Notes under the pieces: generated by a model
Told to the model about the DNA's origin: nothing
Seen by the model: only the letters and a program-made list of their open reading frames with translations
Databases searched by the model: none
In this document: positions 2,237-48,593 of the stretch, one piece after another
How the letters are laid out: every line of letters begins with the position of its first letter
Numbering within the stretch: the first letter of the stretch is position 1
Program-made: the position numbers and the translations under genes
From: Solitalea canadensis DSM 3403
GTDB lineage: Bacteria > Bacteroidota > Bacteroidia > Sphingobacteriales > Sphingobacteriaceae
Assembly: GCF_000242635.2 (NCBI RefSeq)
Contig: NC_017770.1
Coordinates: 3,422,669-3,486,668, forward strand
Length of the DNA: 64,000 nt
Direction of reading: 5' to 3'

Positions 2237-3155
2237 CTATTAATTCAAGAATTCTGTTCAAATCATTGGTAGACAGAACAGGGATTTCAATTTTACCTTT
2301 TCCATTATCATCGATTCGTAAAGCTACTTTAGTGCCGAATCTTGAAGAAAGCCCATCCTGAACTTTTTTCAAGTGGAATGACATCGTAGTTGGTTCTTTA
2401 CGTTCCACAGGTTCTGTTTTCTTACCCAGATCACGAACTAACTCTTCTACTTTACGTACAGAAAGTTCTTTTTCAATGATCTGACGATAGATCCATAACT
2501 GTTTATCGATATCGCCTACGTTGATGATTGCCCTTGCGTGGCCCATAGAGATCCGTCCATCGCGAATACCCGCCTGAATAACAGGAGGCAACTTCAACAA
2601 ACGAAGATAGTTGGTTACAGTAGAACGATTCTTACTTACACGCTCGCCCAATTCTTCTTGTTTCAGTCCTACTTCATCAACCATACGCTGGAAACTGATA
2701 GCGATCTCAATTGCATTCAGGTCTTCACGCTGAATGTTTTCGATCAGACCCATCTCCAACATTTCCTGATCGTTGGCTGTACGGATATAAGCAGGAACCT
2801 CTGTTAAACCTGCAAGTTTAGATGCACGTAAACGACGTTCACCCGAAATCAACTGATACTGGTCATCATTCAGCTTACGTAATGTTAATGGCTGAATAAT
2901 GCCTTGTAATTTTATTGATTCTGAAAGTTCACCTAATGCCAGTTCATCAAAATCTGTACGTGGTTGGAATGGATTCGTATCGATTTTATCAACAGGAATA
3001 AACGAAACCGAACCAGCGGCATTAACTACAGGAGCAGGAGCTGTTGCAGTGTTTGCTGTCGGTTTGTGTAAATTTTCGTGAATTTCAGTAGTGTCATTTT
3101 CCGCCAACAAGGCGCCCAATCCCTTCCCTAAAGCACTTTTTTTAATGGCACTCAT
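2229..3155 (-). CDS. parB: Chromosome partitioning protein ParB
   Basis: Site-specific DNA-binding CTPase clamp that loads at parS and works with ParA in chromosome segregation. The 308-aa protein has an N-terminal leader (SALGKGLGALL), the ParB/Srx-like nuclease fold with NPFQPRTDF and the GERRLRASK CTP-binding box, then the helix-turn-helix domain (MGLIENIQREDLNAIE; GHARAI). A C-terminal dimerisation segment follows. It is 223 bp downstream of parA, with a predicted promoter between, and overlaps the DUF5683 gene. I did not find a convincing parS (TGTTTCACGTGAAACA-like) in the window. Confidence 0.97.
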   Translation of the reverse strand: MSAIKKSALGKGLGALLAENDTTEIHENLHKPTANTATAPAPVVNAAGSVSFIPVDKIDTNPFQPRTDFDELALGELSESIKLQGIIQPLTLRKLNDDQYQLISGERRLRASKLAGLTEVPAYIRTANDQEMLEMGLIENIQREDLNAIEIAISFQRMVDEVGLKQEELGERVSKNRSTVTNYLRLLKLPPVIQAGIRDGRISMGHARAIINVGDIDKQLWIYRQIIEKELSVRKVEELVRDLGKKTEPVERKEPTTMSFHLKKVQDGLSSRFGTKVALRIDDNGKGKIEIPVLSTNDLNRILELIGE

Positions 3156-3268
3156 TTGTATCTGATTTTAAGTTTTGAATAAAAAGTAAATTATCAATCG
3201 GTAAAATCAATAATAACTTTTGCGTCTTTTATAGTATGTCTAATTTTCTTGCAAGCTTAAATATTGCA

Positions 3269-3295
3269 TAACCCCAGCCATAATGGCTGGGGTTA
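3269..3295. repeat. Perfect 12-bp hairpin between parA and parB
   Basis: Arms 3269-3280 and 3284-3295 pair perfectly around a 3-base loop, with a G/C-rich core (CCCCAGCC/GGCTGGGG). No T-run follows on the minus strand, so it is not a textbook terminator for parA. If the promoter at 3333-3340 is real, it lies in the parB mRNA leader. Confidence 0.7.
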
Positions 3296-3332
3296 GCTAT
3301 TTTCTCAGAAATTATTTACCGATAATTTGCCG

Positions 3333-3340
3333 CAAAGGTA
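3333..3340 (-). promoter_or_regulatory. Candidate -7 box of a parB promoter
   Basis: On the minus strand TACCTTTG followed by C matches the Bacteroidota -7 consensus TAnnTTTG. No well-spaced TTTG -33 box is seen. It lies about 180 bp upstream of the parB start and would let parB be transcribed apart from parA. Confidence 0.4.
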
Positions 3341-3378
3341 ATAAAAAACCTTTTTTAGTGAATTCGGTCAATAGTTGT

Positions 3379-4185
3379 TTATTCGGCATCGTGTCCTACT
3401 TCAACTCCGGCGTCAATTGCGACCCCATTTTTACGAAGCATTTCACGTGCAAGATTTAAATAGTTAACCGCACCTTTACTTGATGCATCATGCATAATGG
3501 CCGAAACTCCAAAACTTGGTGCTTCACTTAATTTAGTGTTACGCGCAATGATTGTATCAAACACTAAGTCTTGGAAGTGTGTTTTCACTTCTTCCACCAC
3601 CTGGTTCGACAAACGTAAACGAACATCATACATTGTTAATAAAATACCTTCAATCTGTAAATTAGTATTTAAACGAGATTGAACGATCTTAATTGTATTT
3701 AACAATTTACCTAATCCCTCCAAGGCGAAATATTCACATTGAACAGGAACTATTACTGAATCTGCTGCTGCCAATGCATTGATAGTGATCAAACCTAATG
3801 AAGGCGAACAGTCAATAATGATAAAATCATACTGATCACGAACTGAATCAAGTACTTTTTTCATTTTAAACTCACGCTCTGGCAGATTGATCATCTCAAT
3901 TTCAGCGCCGACAAGGTCGATGTGGGCTGGTAATAAATCAAGATTAGGAGTTGTGGTTTTAATAATCGCTTCTTTTGGATCAAGATCATTAATGATACAC
4001 TCATAAACACTTGACTTAATACTACGTGGATCGTAGCCTGTACCTGAAGTACTATTTGCCTGCGGATCGCCGTCGACCAACAAGGTTTTAAAATCAAGCA
4101 CCCCTAAGCTGGCAGCAAGGTTGATGGCTGATGTGGTTTTACCTACTCCGCCTTTCTGATTGGCAAGCGCAATAATCTTACTCAT
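3379..4185 (-). CDS. parA: Chromosome partitioning ATPase ParA (Soj)
   Basis: Deviant Walker-A ATPase of the ParA/MinD family that moves ParB-parS complexes on the nucleoid. Residues 11-18 (KGGVGKTT) are the deviant Walker A with its signature lysine. DGDPQAN is the A' motif and IIIDCSPSLGLI the Walker B. The length, 268 aa, is typical. It heads the parA-parB-DUF5683-dapB-lepB block and is divergent from the flavin reductase gene. Confidence 0.97.
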   Translation of the reverse strand: MSKIIALANQKGGVGKTTSAINLAASLGVLDFKTLLVDGDPQANSTSGTGYDPRSIKSSVYECIINDLDPKEAIIKTTTPNLDLLPAHIDLVGAEIEMINLPEREFKMKKVLDSVRDQYDFIIIDCSPSLGLITINALAAADSVIVPVQCEYFALEGLGKLLNTIKIVQSRLNTNLQIEGILLTMYDVRLRLSNQVVEEVKTHFQDLVFDTIIARNTKLSEAPSFGVSAIMHDASSKGAVNYLNLAREMLRKNGVAIDAGVEVGHDAE

Positions 4186-29489: not shown

Positions 29490-30050
29490 GGATTCTAAAT
29501 CAAATAAAGAGACGTAAAAACTTTAAAATGGTATAGTTAAATCGTAAACAACTTTCTGAAATAAGAATAAACTAAAACTTCTGACACCAAATATCCGTTA
29601 TGGTTTACTCTCAAAATAACTTTTTTATAATGCGTTACGCGACTGAAAAAACGTCCCTTAAATCATTGAATCCAGCTTTAAAAGTATTTTCTTTCGTCGC
29701 CTTCAGCGGGACTCACTTTTTTTCTTCAGCAAAAAAAGTGAGCAAAAAATGCCGTCGCTGCGTACAGTTCTCCTAAAGTTGATGCCTGTACTTAAATAAT
29801 CTCTTCCGAACTGTACGAGGCGATTTTACTCATATGATAATTTATGCTTTACATTCACAAAGGAAAGCAAATCGCATAACGTTTTTTCTACTTTAGAAGA
29901 TACGAATTTTGACTGCCAAAAATAACAGTTGAGCAAAAAATATCTTCAGCTACATTTTATTAACAATTCTCCGACCAAAGAGATTGTAATTATAACGCTT
30001 TAATCCAAATTTCTTATTCCTAACTTCGCAATCTTAAACAAAGTATTTTA
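29490..30050. other. Gene-free region holding a ~200-bp structured repeat
   Basis: 561 bp between divergent genes. Apart from the repeat at 29685-29881 I see only A/T-rich sequence. A near -7 box (TAACTTCGC, about 30020) may be the promoter of the ABC-F gene. Confidence 0.5.
29685..29881. repeat. Structured interspersed repeat, copy 1
   Basis: About 197 bp matching 43165-43365 over the whole length with scattered changes. It has three inverted-repeat pairs: 29712-29723 with 29731-29742 (12 bp, perfect), 29755-29769 with 29809-29823 (13 of 15), and 29820-29826 with 29869-29875 (7 bp). The second and third pairs are kept base for base in copy 2 while the loops differ. Confidence 0.8.
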
Positions 30051-32003: not shown

Positions 32004-32076
32004 GTCTTCGTAGCTCAGTTGGTAGAGCAACAGACTCTTAATCTGTGGGTCGAGAGTTCGAGCCTCTCCGGGGACA
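32004..32076 (+). tRNA. tRNA-Lys (anticodon CTT)
   Basis: A 73-base cloverleaf. The acceptor is GTCTTCG with CGGGGAC (two G-T pairs), the D stem GCTC/GAGC, and the anticodon stem ACAGA/TCTGT around loop CTCTTAA, so the anticodon is CTT (Lys, codon AAG). The T stem is GAGAG/CTCTC with loop TTCGAGC, and the discriminator is A. No CCA is encoded. A terminator follows. Its 3' end is repeated at 35587-35656. Confidence 0.96.
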
Positions 32077-32127
32077 CTGTAAAAGAAAAGCTTAATCATA
32101 GTTGATTGAGCTTTTTTTATGTGTGTA
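32055..32127 (+). repeat. Direct repeat 1 (tRNA-Lys 3' end plus terminator), putative att site
   Basis: From the T loop through the acceptor 3' strand, the terminator hairpin and the downstream TTATGTGTGTA, this segment matches 35587-35656 with only a few substitutions and short gaps. The pair flanks the Lnt-like gene cluster. Confidence 0.75.
32086..32118 (+). terminator. Terminator of tRNA-Lys
   Basis: Stem 32086-32098 with 32103-32115 (AAAAGCTTAATCA, one G-T pair), loop TAGT, then T-run. A slightly altered copy lies inside direct repeat 2. Confidence 0.85.
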
Positions 32128-32157
32128 TAGCAGATTTGCGTTTTAGCATTCTATTTC

Positions 32158-33675
32158 CTATTTCCAACATAAATAAATTTTAAGACTCTGCAAGCATAGT
32201 AGTAGTATAATACTGATTAACAGCCAAAAACTTAAGAAAAGTGGATATTTTGAATAAAATGTTTGCTTCTCTAAAAGCGATGCGATAGCAACAGCTGTGC
32301 AAGCTTTGTATGGTGACAAGGACTTAATAAGGTTACCTTTATCCGTGATTAAGCAGGCAATGCCTTGATTGGAAGATTTAATGATATAACGACGGTTCTC
32401 AATGCTTCGAATACGTGCCATGTCGTTATACAAACTGATAGCAAACCTCGAACCTTTAAAACAGCGTTCACTCGCCTGAATAGTAATAATATTGGACTTA
32501 GCACTATTTTTTAAAAAGAAAAAGCTGTTTAATAATTCACTGCAAATTGCAGGGAAGATCTTAAGGTCACCACTAACATACAAGTCATTCTTTTCGTTGT
32601 TAATGGTGAAGAGATCTTTTTGGTTAAGGTATTTCGATAAATTATAAGGAGTTCGCTCGCTGAACGGTACTAATATTTTTTTGGTTCTGTAACCACGAAT
32701 ACCCTCATTGGTAATGAAGGATGTGGCATTATAGCAATGATAATAAAACTTAAACGTGCTGTCATAGTTTGCATTATCTGTTTTTTCAGCAGCTTCATTA
32801 ATGGTTATACCCCACATTACTGTACTCTTAGGATATTTTTTCAGTAAGCTTTTAATGGTTGCAACTTCATACGAATTATCAATCGAGTTTGTCCATACCG
32901 GAGTGACATAAGGTGTTTCAGTTGAAACAACAAGATCTATTGTGGAATCTAGTCTTGATTTTATCAATTTGATCAGCTTATTTGTTAATGCTTTTTCAGA
33001 CTGGTTGTAATTCAATGATGGTTGCATAAACAATACTTTGATATGGCCAACTGGTACCGGGTTCTTGTTGTAAAGATAATTTGAGATGATTAACGGCAAA
33101 TTGATAATGAACAGTAAACAAACACCAAGAAACACGTAAATACGTTTGAATTTAATGCATTGACAACCGATTAGAAATAACACCAGATTTATAGACATTA
33201 TCCAAAGTGTACCGCCCACAACACCCGTGTATTCATACCATTGTATTAATTTAGGATAAGCACCCAGCAAATTACCAACTACAGGCCATGACCAAATAAC
33301 ATTTGTGCTTATCCAACCTGTTTCCAACAAAGCCCACAGACAGATAAAGAACAGCAATGTTTTTATTACAGACATGTGCTTTCGTAAAAGTTCAGTAAGT
33401 ACAAAGGGTAACAGCATAATTAGCGAAGCGAGAAATAAAATGAAGGTGGACCAAAACAAATTCTCACTGATCATCCAATAGCCGACACATATGTTCCAAA
33501 GCAGCAATTGACAAAAAAATACTGATAACTTACACCAATAGCTAACACAGCTAAGTAATTGGAAGAAAACAGGAATGAATACCACGAATCCAAAAATGAA
33601 ATGTACGTGCCAAGTAAGAACGGTTAATATAATATTGATAACGAATGAAATCAGAAAAGTAAAATTTCTGTTCAT
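32158..33675 (-). CDS. Apolipoprotein N-acyltransferase-like (Lnt) protein
   Basis: A 505-aa inner-membrane enzyme of the Lnt type. About seven hydrophobic segments (residues 1-205) are followed by a periplasmic nitrilase-like domain (about 210-465) and a last membrane helix (475-498). The catalytic triad of the family is present: Glu253 in STETPYV, Lys333 in KKILVPFSER, Cys378 in PAICSELL. Glu340 (PFSE) is also kept. Lnt adds the third acyl chain to lipoproteins. This copy is divergent (ICSE instead of the usual CYE) and sits in the putative island with a lipoprotein gene, so it may serve particular substrates. A housekeeping role cannot be excluded. Confidence 0.85.
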   Translation of the reverse strand: MNRNFTFLISFVINIILTVLTWHVHFIFGFVVFIPVFFQLLSCVSYWCKLSVFFCQLLLWNICVGYWMISENLFWSTFILFLASLIMLLPFVLTELLRKHMSVIKTLLFFICLWALLETGWISTNVIWSWPVVGNLLGAYPKLIQWYEYTGVVGGTLWIMSINLVLFLIGCQCIKFKRIYVFLGVCLLFIINLPLIISNYLYNKNPVPVGHIKVLFMQPSLNYNQSEKALTNKLIKLIKSRLDSTIDLVVSTETPYVTPVWTNSIDNSYEVATIKSLLKKYPKSTVMWGITINEAAEKTDNANYDSTFKFYYHCYNATSFITNEGIRGYRTKKILVPFSERTPYNLSKYLNQKDLFTINNEKNDLYVSGDLKIFPAICSELLNSFFFLKNSAKSNIITIQASERCFKGSRFAISLYNDMARIRSIENRRYIIKSSNQGIACLITDKGNLIKSLSPYKACTAVAIASLLEKQTFYSKYPLFLSFWLLISIILLLCLQSLKIYLCWK

Positions 33676-33756
33676 ATTAAATAACAGGAGTAATGAAAAA
33701 GGGATGGCATTGCCTTCCCTTAATTAAAAAATTATAAAGAAAAAATAATGTATTTC

Positions 33757-34587
33757 TTATTGATACTTAGCAAAATTACCAATTGAAGTGATAGCCTGTA
33801 AGTCCATTATCTGCTGCTGGCCATCCACTTCAACCGTAACGATTTTAAAGTTACACCTTCCTATACTAAATGAAAGAAATGCACCTTTAGGAATACCTTT
33901 GAAGTCTTCTTCGGAAAAGGTATATGTTCCTGTATCTTCAGTAATAATTGGGTTGTAAAAAGAAGTTTTATAGCCACCCTCAACAAACTGTTGATTATCA
34001 GAAGAAGCCGTATAATCAATGGTCATAACTACACCTTTATCATTTTTTGGGTCAGCATTCCATGTTACTGTTGCTCCTGGTTTAATATATGAACGACTTC
34101 CTTCATCAGCTGGTCCCGTTGGAATAGAAAGTATACGAATTGCTTCCGGCACGTACATTTCTTCAGTGTTCATATCTCCGGTCGTACTGTTTGTTATTTT
34201 TCCATTTAACGAAAACTTTACTGTTTTACCGTAAATGTTTTTACCATCTGTATCTAAATTGTAACTATTATAATTGGGATTGCCTCCACTACTTTCAATC
34301 TTTTTATTCTTAACCAAAGAAATGTTATTTACATGTATGGCTTGAACTGTCTTATTATTAAAAGAATAATAATCCATTTGAAAACTACGGTCTTTATAAT
34401 CTTGTGATGTTTGTGTACTAAAAGTCTGAATTATTACACCTCCGTCAACCAATATGTTGGCATGACCAACATATTGAGCAATTAATGAATTGTTTGCCTG
34501 CTTTTTTTGACTGGGATTAACACCTTCATTTTGACAAGATGCTCCTAACAATGCAACTGCTGATAATACTAATAAACGCTTTTCCAT
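33757..34587 (-). CDS. Putative lipoprotein, unknown function
   Basis: A 276-aa protein with a lipoprotein signal (MEKRLLVLSAVALLGASC, lipidated Cys18). The mature part looks beta-rich, with no family I recognise: VGHANILVDGGVIIQTF, KTVKFSLNGKI, GATVTWNADPKNDKGVVMTIDYT, TGTYTFSEEDFKGIPKGAFLSFSIGR. The pattern is that of an Ig-like or carbohydrate-binding-type sandwich, but that is a guess. It lies between the Lnt-like gene (81 bp) and a secreted-protein gene (24 bp), and is probably in one transcript with the latter. Confidence 0.7.
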   Translation of the reverse strand: MEKRLLVLSAVALLGASCQNEGVNPSQKKQANNSLIAQYVGHANILVDGGVIIQTFSTQTSQDYKDRSFQMDYYSFNNKTVQAIHVNNISLVKNKKIESSGGNPNYNSYNLDTDGKNIYGKTVKFSLNGKITNSTTGDMNTEEMYVPEAIRILSIPTGPADEGSRSYIKPGATVTWNADPKNDKGVVMTIDYTASSDNQQFVEGGYKTSFYNPIITEDTGTYTFSEEDFKGIPKGAFLSFSIGRCNFKIVTVEVDGQQQIMDLQAITSIGNFAKYQ

Positions 34588-34611
34588 ATTTCTGTTAATT
34601 TTTACTTTAAA

Positions 34612-35154
34612 TTATTCACATACTTCATATCCAAAATAATTCATCTTTATTTGGGTATTATAGCCACCAAAACCTCGACTTGTTACGCTACCCTTATAGT
34701 TAGTTCTTGCAGATTTACCTTTGGTCAACTGATACAGATCATTGCGTATTGAACACATATCAGAAAATTCAACACTGATTTCATATTCATAATTGTACAA
34801 GAAATTCGGAATAGTTAACGCATAACTACCATTAGATGAAGAGATGTAATACATATCTGTTTTATTTGTGTTTAAATTTTTCACACTAACCCTACAGAAA
34901 AATTTATTTACATCACCTTTCACAGTAGCACCAACAGTTCCAAAAGGATTAGCTTTATTCCCATTTGGAAACTTGGCTTCCAAAAAATCAAGTAAGATGG
35001 TGCCACTTTTAGGCTGGTTGGTATAAGCGTTTCCAGTATTCATTGGATGACTTTTTAAGCCAAATCCACCGCCACCCCCTCCTGCTGTTAAGGTCATAAA
35101 ACATATCAGTACGAACCCTAATAAGCTAATTGGTTTAAGAAAATTTTTAATCAT
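34612..35154 (-). CDS. Secreted protein with Gly-rich N-terminus, unknown function
   Basis: A 180-aa protein. A signal peptide (MIKNFLKPISLLGFVLICFMTLTAG) is followed by six glycines, FGLKSHPMN, and a single beta-rich domain (ATVKGDVNKFFCRVSVKNL, GSYALTIPNFLYNYEYEISVEF) that resembles a carboxypeptidase-regulatory or Ig-like module. It contains three Cys after the signal peptide. It is the first gene of the three-gene set in the island. No family was recognised. Confidence 0.65.
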   Translation of the reverse strand: MIKNFLKPISLLGFVLICFMTLTAGGGGGGFGLKSHPMNTGNAYTNQPKSGTILLDFLEAKFPNGNKANPFGTVGATVKGDVNKFFCRVSVKNLNTNKTDMYYISSSNGSYALTIPNFLYNYEYEISVEFSDMCSIRNDLYQLTKGKSARTNYKGSVTSRGFGGYNTQIKMNYFGYEVCE

Positions 35155-35586
35155 AATTCATTCAGATGTTTTTAAAGTGATATTATGACTTGAAAATTAT
35201 TAGAAAAACAAGCAAAATTCTATTCGAAAAAAACTTAAAATCATCCAATATGTGCTTTTTTTCACAGGCGCCATTAAGGGGACGGCAACAGTTAATTAGA
35301 GGTGTAAAACAAACGATTTACATAGCCAAAAATGCTTTTCTTCTGAAGAGAGTTTCACTTAAACTATTTTGGTAAATGCATTACAATTTATTTATGAGGT
35401 ATGCAAAGTGGGTACAGACTATTTACTTATAGCTGTAAAGTGTATATAATTATCCAAATAGTCCATCTGGTTTATGACTGAGATATTTATTACAGAAACG
35501 ATATAGGTAGAGACTTATATGAATACAAATATTAACAATTGCTAAAGGTTAATTACTATGACGTAGGCATCTTGCAACTATTTAAT
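35155..35586. other. A/T-rich intergenic stretch inside the putative island
   Basis: No supported gene. A 61-codon plus-strand frame at 35190-35375 has no recognisable features. The stretch carries upstream signals for the minus-strand trio but I could not place a promoter. Confidence 0.4.
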
Positions 35587-35656
35587 AGTTCGAACCTCTC
35601 CGGGGGCACTGTAAAAGAAAGCTTAATCTTATTTGATTGAGCTTTTTATGTGTGTA
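35587..35656 (+). repeat. Direct repeat 2, partial copy of tRNA-Lys 3' end plus terminator
   Basis: It starts in the T loop (GTTCGAACCTCTCC), keeps an acceptor 3' strand CGGGGGC plus A, and continues through the same terminator hairpin and TTTTTATGTGTGTA as at 32055-32127. No 5' half of a tRNA precedes it. Confidence 0.75.
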
Positions 35657-35728
35657 GAAAACTTTTTAAACGATTTTTAGAGACACTCCTCATACCTTGA
35701 TAATTTACATTTTCAAATTTCTCAAAAA

Positions 35729-37082
35729 TTAGAACATCCTTTTCATGATTTGTGAGATACTCTGTGGCTCTTTAACCTTTCTAATCAGACTAAAATGACA
35801 GCCTCTTTTCCCTCCTTCATAAGTAATCAACCTTAGGTCCCTCATACGATTTTCCAGAATAGTTGTGCTTACTTTAAACTCATCTGCTAACGAAGTAATC
35901 ATAACTTGAAAATCTCGAATATTACAAGGTTGATTATCTAAAAAAACAGATCCTAGTTTACTAATGCCCTCTCTCATTTGCCAGGCCTCTAATTTACCAA
36001 GAACACATCGATATGGCATAATCAGTGCAGCTGCGAACTGATTAGCTTGCCATTCAAGCCAATGCTTTTCGTTAGTTAACAAATATTTACCTGTAGCAGA
36101 ATCATAAGCGGAATCATTCAAATTATCATAAATCATTTGTGACATTTGTACATTTGTGTGCAAAAAGAAATGAGCAATTTCATGGGCACAAACAAATGCA
36201 AATTGCTCTGTATCTCTTAAAGACACATCAATGAAAATCTTTTTATTTTCAATATCACAATAACCGTTAAGTTTCTTGCCTTTATCAATAGGTATGATTT
36301 GATCCGTTATAGTTTCAAGGTTAAAATTTTCCTTAAGGTAAATTATAAAATTATCGATAGGAAAATATTTAAAATCAGAGAGTATTGATGGATTAAAATC
36401 CTGTATAATACTAATAGTTATATTTTCAATTAATTGATGAGATAACTTTTGCAAACCAACTGCATTGACACCTGGCTGCTCCCAATCAACTGAGAAAGAT
36501 AGTTGCCTTATTAAGAAATCTTTTATGTTATTGTCCCAATCTGGCTCCAAGCCATTGCAATCATCATAAATGTGATTAATTTCCTTTAATTGAGCAATCT
36601 GTTTTTCAGATGAATCAACATACTTATCAAAAATATACTTTCCTTTCTATTCTTATTGTGCAGAACTATCTTGGATTTTTGATTTTTATCAACTTCGATA
36701 AGCATTAGATCCTTTGATCTAGCCAAATTTGTAAGCAGATTCTTGTAATTTACCCGTTGTTATAAAAACACCTTTAACTTTTTTTCCTGCAACTTGGTCT
36801 ATTTTACTTACAAATTCTTCTATATCATTTATTGGAACTGAAACGCTATAATCTTTACATTCGATAAGGTATAATATATGACATCTTTCAGCACTTTCTG
36901 GCCAGACCTCTATACTTAAGTCAAAAACAATATCATTTTCCCTATCTCTCGAATAATAGGGTCGCTTACGAAAAAACTCTACAACATGTTGGTATTAAAC
37001 CAAGTTGACCTTCATTGATGGCTGAAATAATTATTTCATATGCTTTTTCTTCAAATAAATCGCCTTTTAAGGTAGTATTCAT
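35729..37082 (-). pseudogene. Decayed Mrr-type endonuclease / ImmA-IrrE metallopeptidase fusion
   Basis: Read across three frame changes this is one gene of about 450 codons. From the ATG at 37080-37082, frame 1 gives MNTTLKGDLFEEKAYEIIIS to LIP. After a shift near 36990, frame 2 gives FFRKRPYYSRDREND, then IVFDLSIEVW, LYLIECKDY (PD-D/ExK type) and VPINDIEEFVSKIDQVAG. A second shift near 36722 leads to ARSKDLMLIEV. A third, at a T-run near 36635, enters the 273-codon intact C-terminal part. That part has the ImmA/IrrE zinc site HEIAH and EWQANQFAAALIMP. Mrr-like domains cut DNA, and ImmA/IrrE proteases cleave repressors of mobile elements or stress regulators. The C-terminal frame has no good start of its own. 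Confidence 0.82.
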
Positions 37083-37173: not shown

Positions 37174-38115
37174 CTAAAACGGCAGCGTTGCCAGATCAAC
37201 ATTACCCCCTGAGATAATAATCCCAATTCTCTGACCTGCAAACCGCTCTTTGTTTTTGATAATAACAGCCAAGGCAACTGCCGAAGATGGTTCAACAATT
37301 ATTTTCATTCGTTCCCAAATGAGTTTCATGGCAGCTGCGATTTCTTCGTCATTCGCTAACAAAATCTCGCTCACATGTTCACGAATAATTGCTAATGTCC
37401 TTTCACTTAAAGTAGTTAACAATCCATCTGCAATGCTTGAAATATAAGGAGGTTTCTCCACCTTGCCGCTTTTGAATGATAAAACTGCATCGGCAGCACC
37501 TTCGGGTTCTGCGCCTACTACTTTGGTAGATGGGGAAAAATAATGTGCGGATAAGGAGGTACCACTTAAAAGTCCGCCGCCTCCAACAGGCGTTATTATA
37601 GTATCGAACGTAAACGTTGAATCTTCAATCAATTCCTTTGCAGCGGTAGCTTGCCCGGCAATTACCCGGTCGTTGTCGAATGGATGGACTAAAACTGCTC
37701 CACGAGTTTCAATTATTTCCTTTACACCTGCTTCCCGTGCATCTAACGTAGGTTCACATTCAATTACTTCGGCTCCATAACCTAATACTGCATTTTTCTT
37801 TACAATCGGCGCTGTTTTAGGCATTACAATATAGGCTGGAAGCCCCACCTTTTTTGCCGCGTAAGCAACGGCTTGAGCATGATTACCAGACGAATGGGTT
37901 GTTATTGCCTGCGCTTCATTATTGGCAGCTACTTGCAATACAGCATTTAACCCTCCCCTAGCTTTAAAAGCCCCAATTTTCTGAAAGTTTTCACATTTAA
38001 AGTAAATCGCTGCTCCGGTCAATTCATTAATTGTATGGTTGGTAAAAACGGGGGTATGGTGTATATGGTCACGAATTCTTTCGTGCGCTTTTTGGATATC
38101 TTCTACGGTAATCAT
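37174..38115 (-). CDS. Threonine dehydratase / serine racemase-type PLP enzyme
   Basis: A 313-aa fold-type II PLP enzyme. The PLP lysine lies in KIGAFKARGG (about residue 52), the substrate loop is SSGNHAQAVAYAA, and the phosphate-binding tetraglycine is VGGGGLLSG. A conserved IISGGNVDL end follows. It deaminates threonine or serine to 2-oxo acids, or racemises serine. At this length it lacks the ACT regulatory domain of biosynthetic IlvA, so a catabolic role is likely. It is divergent from the GNAT pair. Confidence 0.92.
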   Translation of the reverse strand: MITVEDIQKAHERIRDHIHHTPVFTNHTINELTGAAIYFKCENFQKIGAFKARGGLNAVLQVAANNEAQAITTHSSGNHAQAVAYAAKKVGLPAYIVMPKTAPIVKKNAVLGYGAEVIECEPTLDAREAGVKEIIETRGAVLVHPFDNDRVIAGQATAAKELIEDSTFTFDTIITPVGGGGLLSGTSLSAHYFSPSTKVVGAEPEGAADAVLSFKSGKVEKPPYISSIADGLLTTLSERTLAIIREHVSEILLANDEEIAAAMKLIWERMKIIVEPSSAVALAVIIKNKERFAGQRIGIIISGGNVDLATLPF

Positions 38116-41313: not shown

Positions 41314-41868
41314 CTACTTCACTTCGTAACTCAACAAAACCACCCCACTTTTAAACACCCTTGATCCAGTTAACTTTAAATTCAGTTGATGTTTTAGGCC
41401 TTTAAAAATTGGTGTTCCCTCACCTAATGCTACCGGATCAATCATAATTTCATAACCGTCAATTAAACCTGCATCAGCAAATTGAGTGATGATGCTTCCA
41501 CTACCTAAAATTGTCAAATCTTCTCCGGAAGTCTTCTTTAGTTCTTTTATCCGGGTTACAATATCTCCATTGATTATTTGGGTATTGCTCCAATCGGCTT
41601 TTTTTAATGTAGTTGAAAAAACTATTTTCTGTGCATTATTCATTCCTGCCGCCACGTTTGGATCATTTTCAATAGCAAATGGTGTTGGCCAGTAGCTTGC
41701 CATTAGTTCATAGGTTACACGACCAAACAACAGGATATTCTCAGACTTAAGCGATTGGCTTGCGTACTCGTTTTCTTCAGAACCGTGCTTATGCCAGCTG
41801 GTATCATTACCCGGACCTTTATAAAACCCATTTAATGTTAAAAAATTATAGGCTGTTAACTTTCTCAT
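41314..41868 (-). CDS. Dihydrofolate reductase family protein (RibD C-terminal-like)
   Basis: A 184-aa NADPH-dependent reductase-like protein. The opening is LTAYNFLTLNGFYKGPGNDTSW. ENILLFGRVTYELMASYWPT is the cofactor-region hallmark, and DLTILGSGSIITQFADAGLIDGYEIMIDPVALGEG is the conserved C-terminal core. The family is related to the RibD reductase domain and DHFR. Stand-alone members such as this are usually of unknown substrate. It is followed by its own terminator. Confidence 0.9.
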   Translation of the reverse strand: MRKLTAYNFLTLNGFYKGPGNDTSWHKHGSEENEYASQSLKSENILLFGRVTYELMASYWPTPFAIENDPNVAAGMNNAQKIVFSTTLKKADWSNTQIINGDIVTRIKELKKTSGEDLTILGSGSIITQFADAGLIDGYEIMIDPVALGEGTPIFKGLKHQLNLKLTGSRVFKSGVVLLSYEVK

Positions 41869-41929: not shown

Positions 41930-42445
41930 TTACTGCTTGTGGACTGATTTGTAAATATTTTTTAATTGGTTACAGTGTCGTTGAAGATGAACATTAAAAA
42001 AGTGCAGCCATTCATAACGAGTAAGAAAACCCATAAAGGGAACTTCAAAATCAAGACACACCTCTTCTAAATCTCTTGACGTTATAAATTCAAGATTTTC
42101 ATGCTTAAGAGCTGCTAACCTTTCCAATTGGCTTTTGATAGCAAATGGACCGTCTGAAGGGTGAACAAATTCAGGAGCATTCATTTTAGTATTAAAATCA
42201 AGAAATAACCCCTTCAATGTTTCAACATGCAGATCAAATGGTCGCTCTGCTTTGGTTGTTGAGCCATCCGGCAAGCCGTCTACAGCTTTACTAATATGAT
42301 CAGTAACCTGTCCGGCAGTCCAACCTCCGAACACTGGTTTCCTATTTAATTCTTGCTCACTAAACATAGAGAGTTGTTGAGAATATACATCGAAAGCATT
42401 TTTAAGTTCCTCTCGTAATTCTGTTTTTAGGTCGATTAATTCCAT
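41930..42445 (-). CDS. DinB family protein
   Basis: A 171-aa four-helix-bundle protein. WTAGQVTDHISKAVDG gives the first metal-binding His, and WLHFFNVHLQRHCNQL near the C-terminus gives the other two (HxxRH pattern). DinB-like proteins bind a metal and often act as thiol-dependent transferases or hydrolases; no specific substrate can be named. It lies 61 bp upstream of the RibD-like gene on the same strand and may share its transcript. Confidence 0.88.
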   Translation of the reverse strand: MELIDLKTELREELKNAFDVYSQQLSMFSEQELNRKPVFGGWTAGQVTDHISKAVDGLPDGSTTKAERPFDLHVETLKGLFLDFNTKMNAPEFVHPSDGPFAIKSQLERLAALKHENLEFITSRDLEEVCLDFEVPFMGFLTRYEWLHFFNVHLQRHCNQLKNIYKSVHKQ

Positions 42446-43094: not shown

Positions 43095-43164
43095 ACTTAA
43101 CCAGTTGTGCGATTTAAAATAACTCAAAAACGTCTAATAGTGCAATAAACACAGTTTGATGAAT

Positions 43165-43365
43165 TATTTTCTTCCGCCGCATTCAGCGGGACTCACTTTT
43201 TTTCTTCAGCAAAAAAAAGTAAGCAAAAAATGCCGTCGCTGCGTACAGTTCTTTGACAGTTAATGCGAGTATTTAAATCATCTCTTCCGAACTGTACGAG
43301 GCGATTTTGGCTAATATGATAATTTATGCTTTAAATTCACATATGTGAAATCAAATCGCACAACG
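43165..43365. repeat. Structured interspersed repeat, copy 2
   Basis: About 201 bp matching 29685-29881. The pairing arms 43236-43250 with 43290-43304, and 43301-43307 with 43353-43359, are identical to those of copy 1. The first hairpin (CTCACTTTTTTT) is partly decayed here. It lies in a 414-bp gap between two plus-strand genes. Confidence 0.8.
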
Positions 43366-43378
43366 GGTTAAATTTAAG

Positions 43379-43421
43379 CAACAAACGGAGGTACAAATAA
43401 TTTGTACCTCCGTTTGTTGTT
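43379..43421. terminator. Strong hairpin terminator with 19-bp stem
   Basis: Perfect stem 43379-43397 with 43401-43419 (CAACAAACGGAGG...), loop TAA. It lies 285 bp after the VOC gene and 14 bp after repeat copy 2, so it could end the VOC transcript through the repeat, or a transcript of the repeat itself. The A/T flanks would let it work in either direction. Confidence 0.65.
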
Positions 43422-44432: not shown

Positions 44433-44536
44433 CCTCAAAGTTTGGATTTATCTTTCAATAAAAAGAATCAACGTCTTATTTATTGATTAAGTTCTTTAAA
44501 TTTAAGAGAAGCGACTTTATAAATCATTTATTACCA

Positions 44537-45727
44537 ATGGATATTATTTCTCCCTCTTTTCAACTCCTCTCACTGCTCGACAATGATTTCTATAAATTTA
44601 CGATGCAGCATGCTGTTGTAAAACAGTTCCCCAATGCTAAAGCCCGCTATCAATTCATCAACAGAGGAAAACATGAATTCCCCATTGGTTTCGACAGTGC
44701 TTTACGACAGGCAGTTGATGCCATGGCTGGTTTACAACTAAGCAAAGAGGAAAAAAACTTTCTTACCCAAACTTGTCCTTATTTAGATCCGGCTTACCTT
44801 GATTTCCTGCAGGGCTATCGTTATGATCCCAGTGAGGTGATCATACAACAAAATAATACAGCTATTTCCATCTCCATTGAGGGTTACTGGTACCGGACTA
44901 TTTTATGGGAGGTGCCCTTGTTATCGCTCGTCAGTGAACTTTACTATCGATTAACTAATCAGCAACGTGTTAATGACGAACAGGTTATTGCTATCACAAA
45001 AGATAAGATCGAGAAATACAATAAATTAGGAGTAACTGTTGCCGACTTTGGTACCCGCCGCCGACATTCCTACCAGGTACAACGATTGGTGATCGATACG
45101 TTGAGAAGAAGTGAAGGCAAAAGTTTCATTGGAACAAGCAATGTTCACATGGCCATGTTGTATCAAACAAAACCAATTGGCACACATGCGCATGAATGGT
45201 TTATGTTTCATGCCGCACGCTATGGCTTTAAAATGGCTAATTCATTAGGGTTGGAACATTGGGTGGATGTTTATCGCGGAGATTTAGGAATTGCGCTTTC
45301 AGACACCTACACCTCGAACGTTTTCTTTGAACAATTTGATAAGAAGTTTGCCAAACTTTTTGATGGTGTGCGACATGATAGCGGTGATCCGGTCGAGTTT
45401 GCGGAGAAAACCATCCGTCATTATGAAAAACTAGGAATTAACCCACTCTATAAAACCATTATTTTTTCAGATGCCCTGAATTATGATAAAGTGGAAGTTA
45501 TTGCAAACTATTGCAAGGGAAAAATTGGCGTTTCTTTTGGAATTGGTACCAATTTAACCAATGATGTTGGTTTAAAGCCCATGAATATGGTGATTAAATT
45601 AACGGAAACCCTGCCTCAAAATAAAGAATGGACACCCGTTGTAAAACTTTCGGATGAGAAAGGAAAATATACCGGAGAACCGAAAATGATTGAATTAGCA
45701 AAGACTATTTTAAGTATTCCATATTGA
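44537..45727 (+). CDS. pncB: Nicotinate phosphoribosyltransferase
   Basis: First step of the Preiss-Handler NAD salvage path: nicotinate plus PRPP (with ATP) to nicotinate mononucleotide. The 396-aa chain starts near MDIISPSFQLLSLLDNDFYKFTMQHAV. It contains VADFGTRRRHSYQVQ, the autophosphorylated-His region TKPIGTHAHEWFM, LFDGVRHDSGDPVEFAEK, and IGVSFGIGTNLTND near the end. The ATG at 44537 fits the family better than a TTG 18 codons earlier. Confidence 0.96.
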   Translation: MDIISPSFQLLSLLDNDFYKFTMQHAVVKQFPNAKARYQFINRGKHEFPIGFDSALRQAVDAMAGLQLSKEEKNFLTQTCPYLDPAYLDFLQGYRYDPSEVIIQQNNTAISISIEGYWYRTILWEVPLLSLVSELYYRLTNQQRVNDEQVIAITKDKIEKYNKLGVTVADFGTRRRHSYQVQRLVIDTLRRSEGKSFIGTSNVHMAMLYQTKPIGTHAHEWFMFHAARYGFKMANSLGLEHWVDVYRGDLGIALSDTYTSNVFFEQFDKKFAKLFDGVRHDSGDPVEFAEKTIRHYEKLGINPLYKTIIFSDALNYDKVEVIANYCKGKIGVSFGIGTNLTNDVGLKPMNMVIKLTETLPQNKEWTPVVKLSDEKGKYTGEPKMIELAKTILSIPY

Positions 45728-47587: not shown

Positions 47588-47771
47588 AACTTGAATTACC
47601 ATCAGCTAAAGCACAGTGAACTTAGCAGGATTCGCCCTATCTTATCCAATGACTGAAGTTCAACAACAACGTCGTCATAATTAAATGACATTGAGCTAAG
47701 TCAACAGTCAATGAAAAACTCATTTGCTTGTTCTATGTTTTTTTAGTCAATTTGGCCATCAATCAATACAA

Positions 47772-48593
47772 ATGCAAACAGGACCTATCGGAGTTTTTGA
47801 TTCAGGATACGGGGGATTAACCGTTCTTAAAGAAGTTGTCAAACATTTACCTCAATATGACTATCTCTATTTGGGAGATAACGCACGTGCACCTTACGGA
47901 ACCCGTTCGTTTGAGACCGTTTACCATTATACATTAGAGTGTGTAAACCATTTGTTCAGCATGGACTGTTCACTAGTGATCCTGGCTTGCAACACTGCTT
48001 CGGCAAAAGCGCTCCGTAGTATTCAGCAAAATGATCTTCCTAAAATGGATGGTAACAAACGTGTATTGGGTGTTATTCGCCCGACAGCTGAGATCATCGG
48101 ACGATTTACAAAGAGCAATGAAGTAGGTGTTATGGGAACTGCCGGAACCGTCGCTTCTCTATCCTATCCTATTGAAATGGAGAAATTTTTCCCGGAAACA
48201 AAAGTTTACCAGGAAGCTTGTCCGATGTGGGTACCATTGGTTGAGAACGATGAATACGACAGTCCGGGAGCAGATTATTTTGTTAAACAACATATCGATC
48301 GGATATTAAGCAAAGGAACATCAATAGATACCATTGTGCTGGGTTGCACACATTATCCATTACTAATCGGTAAAATATTAAAATACCTTCCTTCTAACGT
48401 TAAACTGCTTTCACAGGGAGAAATTGTGGCCAATAGTCTTGTCGATTATTTAAACAGGCACCCTGAAATTGAAGAAAAATGCAGTAAAGGTGGTGGCCGT
48501 CGATTTCTAACAACCGATTCAGCTGAATCATTTGATAAACATGCTAGTCGCTTTTTCGGTAAGCCGATACAATCGGAACATCTGGCACTTTAG
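47772..48593 (+). CDS. murI: Glutamate racemase
   Basis: PLP-independent racemase that makes D-glutamate for peptidoglycan, 273 aa. The start MQTGPIGVFDSGYGGLTVLKEV follows family practice; an open 16 codons upstream is left out. The two catalytic cysteines lie in LACNTASAKAL and LGCTHYPLLIG, and YLGDNARAPYGTRS is a further signature. No cell-wall gene adjoins. Confidence 0.95.
   Translation: MQTGPIGVFDSGYGGLTVLKEVVKHLPQYDYLYLGDNARAPYGTRSFETVYHYTLECVNHLFSMDCSLVILACNTASAKALRSIQQNDLPKMDGNKRVLGVIRPTAEIIGRFTKSNEVGVMGTAGTVASLSYPIEMEKFFPETKVYQEACPMWVPLVENDEYDSPGADYFVKQHIDRILSKGTSIDTIVLGCTHYPLLIGKILKYLPSNVKLLSQGEIVANSLVDYLNRHPEIEEKCSKGGGRRFLTTDSAESFDKHASRFFGKPIQSEHLAL

What the first reader, a model, noticed from the sequence alone, without database searches (positions are those of the whole stretch)
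32004..35656. tRNA-Lys flanked by a distant copy of its own 3' end: a small island without integrase
The sequence from the T loop of tRNA-Lys through its terminator (32055-32127) recurs at 35587-35656 with few changes, and no 5' tRNA half precedes the second copy. This is the mark left by a tRNA-targeting integrase. The enclosed ~3.5 kb holds three unlinked-looking envelope genes and no integrase, so it is either a decayed island or a non-autonomous one.
Basis: partly seen in the sequence, partly recalled or inferred. Interest (0 to 1): 0.6.

Follow-up and report, generated by a model that had tools for sequence, protein, structure and literature searches.

The report
Decayed gene island beside tRNA-Lys
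A short stretch of foreign-looking DNA sits next to a lysine tRNA gene and is bounded by a worn copy of that gene's own end, most likely the leftover of an old mobile element that has lost its insertion enzyme; this is an ordinary kind of genomic relic, though a relative in a sister species shows how such elements use this site.

Summary
The repeat is real. tRNA-Lys(CTT) is at 32004-32077. Its T loop through its terminator (32055-32127) recurs at 35587-35656 at 90% identity (E 2e-20 against the whole genome), with no detectable 5' half.

The integrase reading holds up. Of 101 family genomes searched, 7 have a second, partial 3' copy on the same contig, all in tRNA orientation. Five of these have a tyrosine recombinase beside one copy and a sixth a truncated one. 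In the genus, a 30.7 kb Solitalea agri contig with overlapping ends carries a recombinase beside a 68 bp tRNA-Lys 3' end plus terminator, 96% identical to the chromosomal site. Its limits are close to the window's.

The three genes were not found at this site in the three other genus genomes. No recombinase trace was found near the island, and no C50-type recombinase in this genome at E 1e-25. I read it as an immobile relic keeping a probable operon: an apolipoprotein N-acyltransferase paralog, an orphan lipoprotein and an orphan secreted protein. No exact empty site was found, and a decayed tandem tRNA is not fully excluded.

The parts
32004..32077 (+). tRNA-Lys(CTT), intact; proposed insertion target
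   Evidence: ARAGORN
32055..32127 (+). left copy of the repeat: T loop to end of tRNA plus terminator
32158..33675 (-). gene 1: apolipoprotein N-acyltransferase (Lnt) paralog, 505 aa
   Evidence: TIGR00546 E 2e-28, below its cut-off; PF20154 E 5e-4, below cut-off; phmmer to PDB 5n6m E 9e-6; 28% identical to the genome's other Lnt, sharing E253, K332, C378
33757..34587 (-). gene 2: probable lipoprotein, 276 aa, lipobox LGASC read by eye
   Evidence: no Pfam or NCBIfam hit; only the own genome of 121 family genomes matches
34612..35154 (-). gene 3: probable secreted protein, 180 aa, signal sequence read by eye
   Evidence: no Pfam or NCBIfam hit; own genome plus one weak hit (E 5e-4) in 201 family genomes
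35155..35586 (.). non-coding stretch where a recombinase and its arm sites would be expected; none found
35587..35656 (+). right copy of the repeat: displaced 3' end of tRNA-Lys plus terminator, no 5' half

Best explanation
The 3.5 kb between 32128 and 35586 is the shrunken remnant of an element that a tyrosine recombinase inserted into the 3' part of tRNA-Lys(CTT). The element carried a copy of the tRNA from about the T loop through the terminator, so integration rebuilt an intact tRNA with its terminator on the left and displaced the original 3' end to the right, where the two have since drifted to 90% identity. The recombinase gene and its arm sites were lost later, so the island is now immobile and keeps a three-gene envelope operon. 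Shown: the repeat, its polarity, the missing 5' half, the genes not being at this site in relatives, and a recombinase beside the same kind of core in the genus. Inferred: the integration event, the loss of the recombinase, and that the three genes came with the element.
For: Repeat far beyond chance (E 1.7e-20), 3' copy downstream and in tRNA orientation, no 5' half. Of 101 family genomes, 7 show the same arrangement at this tRNA, 5 with a recombinase beside a copy and 1 with a truncated one. S. agri C50: ends overlap by 71 identical bases, recombinase, and 188 bp away a 68 bp core 96% identical to tRNA-Lys position 61 through the terminator. G003:C7:348-504 is 82% identical to that element end plus core. 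Upstream synteny is kept while the 3' side is variable in four genus genomes.
Against: No exact empty site: the sequence right of copy 2 was not found beside tRNA-Lys in any relative. No recombinase or recombinase fragment in the island and no paired arm-like motif. Terminators of this type also follow tRNA-Met. The island end before copy 2 is not similar to the C50 element end. G+C of the island (0.31-0.37 in 500 bp windows) hardly differs from its surroundings.
Confidence: 0.83

Rival explanations
1. Tandem duplication of tRNA-Lys with its terminator. The second copy then lost its 5' half by deletion or by arrival of the three genes; no integrase was involved.
For: Two full tRNA-Lys(CTT) genes close together occur in G008 (1.2 kb) and G108 (166 bp). 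In G003 a decayed 5' half of tRNA-Lys (C33:252-222, by eye) follows the intact one. The repeat includes the terminator, as a duplicated unit would.
Against: No 5' half before copy 2, although the 3' side is still 90% identical. The repeat starts in the T loop, close to where the core of the S. agri element starts. The site is a repeated recombinase target in the family.
Confidence: 0.12
2. A non-autonomous element still mobilised in trans by a recombinase that recognises both copies.
For: Both copies and terminators are largely intact; minimal islands at this tRNA exist elsewhere (G068 5.9 kb, G077 0.76 kb).
Against: No C50-type recombinase in this genome at E 1e-25; no matching core beside another recombinase in this genome; no paired arm-like motif; copies differ by 10%.
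Confidence: 0.04
3. Chance or convergent similarity of tRNA terminators.
For: Similar terminators follow tRNA-Met in this genome.
Against: The similarity runs unbroken into the tRNA-Lys T arm and acceptor (21 of 23 bases), E 1.7e-20 genome-wide.
Confidence: 0.01

Closest known systems
tRNA-targeted genomic islands as collected by Islander (PMC4383910; passages seen)
   Same: intact tRNA gene, cognate 3' fragment downstream in the same orientation, interval over 2 kb
   Different: no integrase gene in the interval, so Islander's own filter would reject it
S. agri MAHUQ-68 contig C50 element (G001:C50)
   Same: core made of tRNA-Lys 3' end plus terminator, starting in or near the T loop
   Different: 30.7 kb with recombinase, Ku, SRAP and type I restriction genes; shares no gene with the window island (its only match to the window's relatives is the core and the G003 end; no window match was listed)
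Islands at the same tRNA in other genera of the family (G016, G018, G056, G058, G064, G068)
   Same: same target tRNA, 3' copy downstream in direct orientation
   Different: core starts at tRNA positions 25-32 rather than 52; 5 of 6 have a full-length recombinase, G068 a truncated one
Lnt, apolipoprotein N-acyltransferase (gene 1 only)
   Same: overall homology and conserved Glu, Lys, Cys positions
   Different: a second, diverged copy, below the curated cut-off, next to an orphan lipoprotein gene

Membership tests
tRNA-targeted genomic island (Islander rules) | cognate tRNA fragment, 3' fragment downstream, same orientation | tested here: met
tRNA-targeted genomic island (Islander rules) | fragment not within a full-length tRNA gene; interval 2-200 kb | tested here: met
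   one tRNA in the window; 3459 bp between the copies
tRNA-targeted genomic island (Islander rules) | integrase gene inside the interval | tested here: not met
   hence 'relic', not a member by these rules
tRNA-targeted genomic island (Islander rules) | unoccupied site in a close relative (added by me) | tested here: inconclusive
   G001 and G002 have no second copy in the 38 and 35 kb read downstream, but their 3' flanks differ from the sequence at 35657
Tandem tRNA duplication | second copy retains or shows traces of the 5' half | tested here: not met
Integrative mobilizable or conjugative element | relaxase or transfer genes in the interval | tested here: not met
   genes 1-3: no such Pfam or NCBIfam hit
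Lnt (gene 1) | catalytic Glu, Lys, Cys (identity of the triad recalled) | tested here: met
   E253, K332, C378 conserved with the genome's other Lnt; Lys and Cys segments align to 5n6m
Lnt (gene 1) | curated profile score | tested here: not met
   TIGR00546 99.6 bits against a cut-off of 132.9
Lnt (gene 1) | N-acyltransferase activity | not testable with these tools
   needs an assay

The most novel reading that the evidence does not exclude
The three genes are a cargo module in which a diverged Lnt paralog N-acylates a dedicated, genome-specific lipoprotein partner, and the module travels as a minimal cassette moved in trans by a Solitalea recombinase group whose core is the tRNA 3' end together with its transcription terminator.
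Probability: 0.05. Interest if true: 0.55.

Novelty: new member of a known kind. Interest (0 to 1): 0.27.

Why it matters
It documents tRNA-Lys(CTT) as a repeatedly used insertion site in this family of Bacteroidota, with stages from a probably circular element, through islands with a recombinase, to one with a broken recombinase, to this relic. It also suggests that a recombinase group in Solitalea carries the tRNA end together with its terminator, so that integration would restore transcription termination as well as the tRNA; the S. agri element makes that testable. The relic itself changes no general idea.

Tried and rejected
Recombinase traces in the island and up to 44.6 kb: only chance-level fragments. 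A decayed 5' tRNA half before copy 2: not significant. Core patterns in the viral-contig collection: 0 matches for the window core and 0 for the S. agri core. Gene 2 in genome contigs and viral contigs: no confirmed relative (short-peptide patterns, so distant relatives would be missed). Gene 3 in plasmids and viral contigs: none. AlphaFold2 without alignment for genes 2 and 3: poor models (mean pLDDT 33.2 and 50.3), so no fold search was run. PADLOC: no meaningful hit for genes 1-3 (gene 1 to GajB at E 0.005 taken as chance). Further recombinase loci of G003 (4 fetched of its 6 matches) as examples of 'tRNA end plus terminator': one abuts a full tRNA-Met (L233). For two others (L232, L235) a long terminator hairpin follows, but the tRNA end could not be identified with the 10 distinct tRNAs on hand, and L234 is unclear; I do not count those three. 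The one search count is a lower bound: weak copies like the window's own fall below its threshold, and cases split over two contigs (G114, G003, G001) were left out of the seven.

Full report
Observation. The window holds one tRNA, tRNA-Lys(CTT) at 32004-32077. Its 3' part and terminator (32055-32127) recur at 35587-35656, with 66 of 73 aligned columns identical and E 1.7e-20 against the whole 5.2 Mb genome. The other seven matches of the query in the genome are weaker; six of them lie at other tRNA genes (tRNA-Met, Lys(TTT), and a Thr/Tyr/Gly/Thr cluster) and one, at 438231, was not typed. The 60 bases before copy 2 align to two tRNA-Lys 5' halves no better than shuffles. Both copies fold as terminators.

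Setting. The genome shares its genus with Solitalea agri MAHUQ-68: the ABC-F match and contig length of G001:C3 are those of record NZ_JAMWYS010000024.1. In all three other genus genomes held, the same ABC-F gene (name recalled; Pfam ABC_tran) precedes tRNA-Lys(CTT). Downstream, the next well-conserved landmarks are 44483-45727 and 47724-48593 (a nicotinate phosphoribosyltransferase and a glutamate racemase, names recalled). They lie 12 and 16 kb after the tRNA here and 31 and 33 kb after it in G001; the second lies about 29 kb after it in G002. In between, gene content largely differs: of the window ORFs there, only 41314-41868 (35%, G002) and 41930-42445 (46%, G001 and G003) had counterparts at E 1e-8, while G001 and G003 share several genes with each other (by eye). 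Directly after the tRNA there are three kinds of terminator in four genomes: the window and G003 share one kind, G001 and G002 each have another. G001 and G002 show no second tRNA-Lys 3' copy in the 38 and 35 kb read downstream.

The site is a repeated target in the family. With a 60-base tRNA-Lys 3' query, 60 of 101 genomes matched at E 1e-4. Second, partial 3' copies on the same contig occur in 7 (G016, G018, G056, G058, G064, G068, G077), all in the tRNA's orientation and on its 3' side, 0.76 to 36 kb away. Five have a tyrosine recombinase directly beside one of the two copies. For G058 only the SAM-like domain PF13102 passed E 1e-3 and the catalytic profile PF00589 did not, although the protein matches the other recombinases. 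G068 has only an arm-domain piece of 177 aa; none was found in G077. Two more genomes, G008 and G108, have two full tRNA-Lys genes close together, so tandem duplication also happens here.

The closest mechanism is in the genus. S. agri contig C50 (30,723 bp) has identical 71-base ends and would close into a circle of 30,652 bp; a k-mer overlap of a circular contig is the simple reading, not proof of a free circle. It encodes a recombinase with Arm-DNA-bind_5, Phage_int_SAM_5 and Phage_integrase domains. Starting 188 bases from that gene is a 68-base stretch 96% identical to tRNA-Lys positions 61-128 of the same genome's chromosome, that is the 3' end of the tRNA and its whole terminator. In the G001 chromosome stretch read around tRNA-Lys, that core is the only match to C50. 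G003:C7:348-504 is 82% identical over 158 bases to the end of that element plus core, and is followed by a FocA-like gene (name recalled) that by eye is the one lying about 10 kb after tRNA-Lys in G001. G003's site therefore looks occupied by a related element, though the adjacency of its two contigs was not shown. One of four fetched G003 relatives of this recombinase abuts a full tRNA-Met. In all five loci examined (C50 and these four) a pair of GGTAAAACA-like motifs 12-13 bases apart precedes the recombinase; I take them as arm sites (noticed by eye, then scanned). The window core begins at tRNA position 52 and runs past the terminator, while six of the seven family islands begin at positions 25-32 and G077 at 45. 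The start of the window core points to the Solitalea type. The end beyond the terminator is less discriminating, since the G058 copies are also identical through theirs and the alignments of G056 and G068 run on more weakly.

What is left in the window. No recombinase trace is found between 31.9 and 44.6 kb, no paired arm-like motif (one single weak match at about 35303, 0.19 expected), and no relative of the C50 recombinase at E 1e-25 in this genome, whereas 37 of 61 genomes searched have one. The seven PF00589 places in the genome, six over the cut-off, all lie more than 800 kb away. The interval holds three minus-strand genes with short gaps. Gene 1 is an Lnt paralog, 28% identical to the genome's other Lnt at 3867072, with Glu, Lys and Cys positions conserved; 120 of 121 family genomes have a hit, the best other one at 136 bits and 28% identity. 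Gene 2 matches only the own genome of 121. Gene 3 matches the own genome and, weakly, one other of 201. This fits imported cargo but does not prove it; the G+C profile does not set the island apart.

Conclusion. By strict Islander rules it is not a member, because the integrase is missing (passages of PMC4383910 seen), so I call it a relic of that kind. That integrases prefer certain sub-regions of tRNA genes is established (Williams 2002, not held; recalled, and cited in PMC8371274, passages seen). The paper searches 'Solitalea' with 'genomic island' and 'tRNA-Lys' with 'integrative', 'attachment site' and 'Bacteroidetes' listed three papers and one; from titles and abstract starts none describes this locus.

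Noticed in passing
G001:C50 (loci L138, L140, L141): 30.7 kb S. agri contig with identical 71-base ends, a recombinase and a tRNA-Lys 3' core; also Ku, SRAP and type I restriction genes among the 12 ORFs scanned, no relaxase among them.
   Followed up: partly
G001:C50 and G003 C3, C13, C15, C32 (L232-L235): Pair of GGTAAAACA-like motifs 12-13 bp apart upstream of each of five related recombinases, probably arm sites.
   Followed up: partly
window 43098-43380: Interspersed repeat of about 270 bp with more than 30 places across the genome (about 71-95% identity), one of them at window 29682-29881; none listed in the three other genus genomes.
   Followed up: no
window 35729-37000: Just right of copy 2: an ImmA/IrrE-type M78 peptidase gene (PADLOC capP E 7e-13) and upstream of it a frame-broken, restriction-endonuclease-like stretch (by eye); possibly the remnant of another mobile element.
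   Followed up: no
G003:C33:252-222 (L071): A decayed 5' half of tRNA-Lys follows the intact tRNA-Lys; unexplained, and a point for tandem tRNA copies at this locus.
   Followed up: no
window 32004-32077: The tRNA-Lys(CTT) body differs from that of the three other genus genomes with paired changes in acceptor and anticodon stems (by eye).
   Followed up: no
L129 (G008:C6) 2500-3600: A ParE-type toxin domain lies in the 1.2 kb between two full tRNA-Lys genes.
   Followed up: no
window 37174-38115: A PLP-dependent lyase whose best NCBIfam profile is beta-hydroxyaspartate dehydratase BhcB (E 1e-126, under the cut-off); only 31-33% identical matches in the other genus genomes among the best hits.
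   Followed up: no
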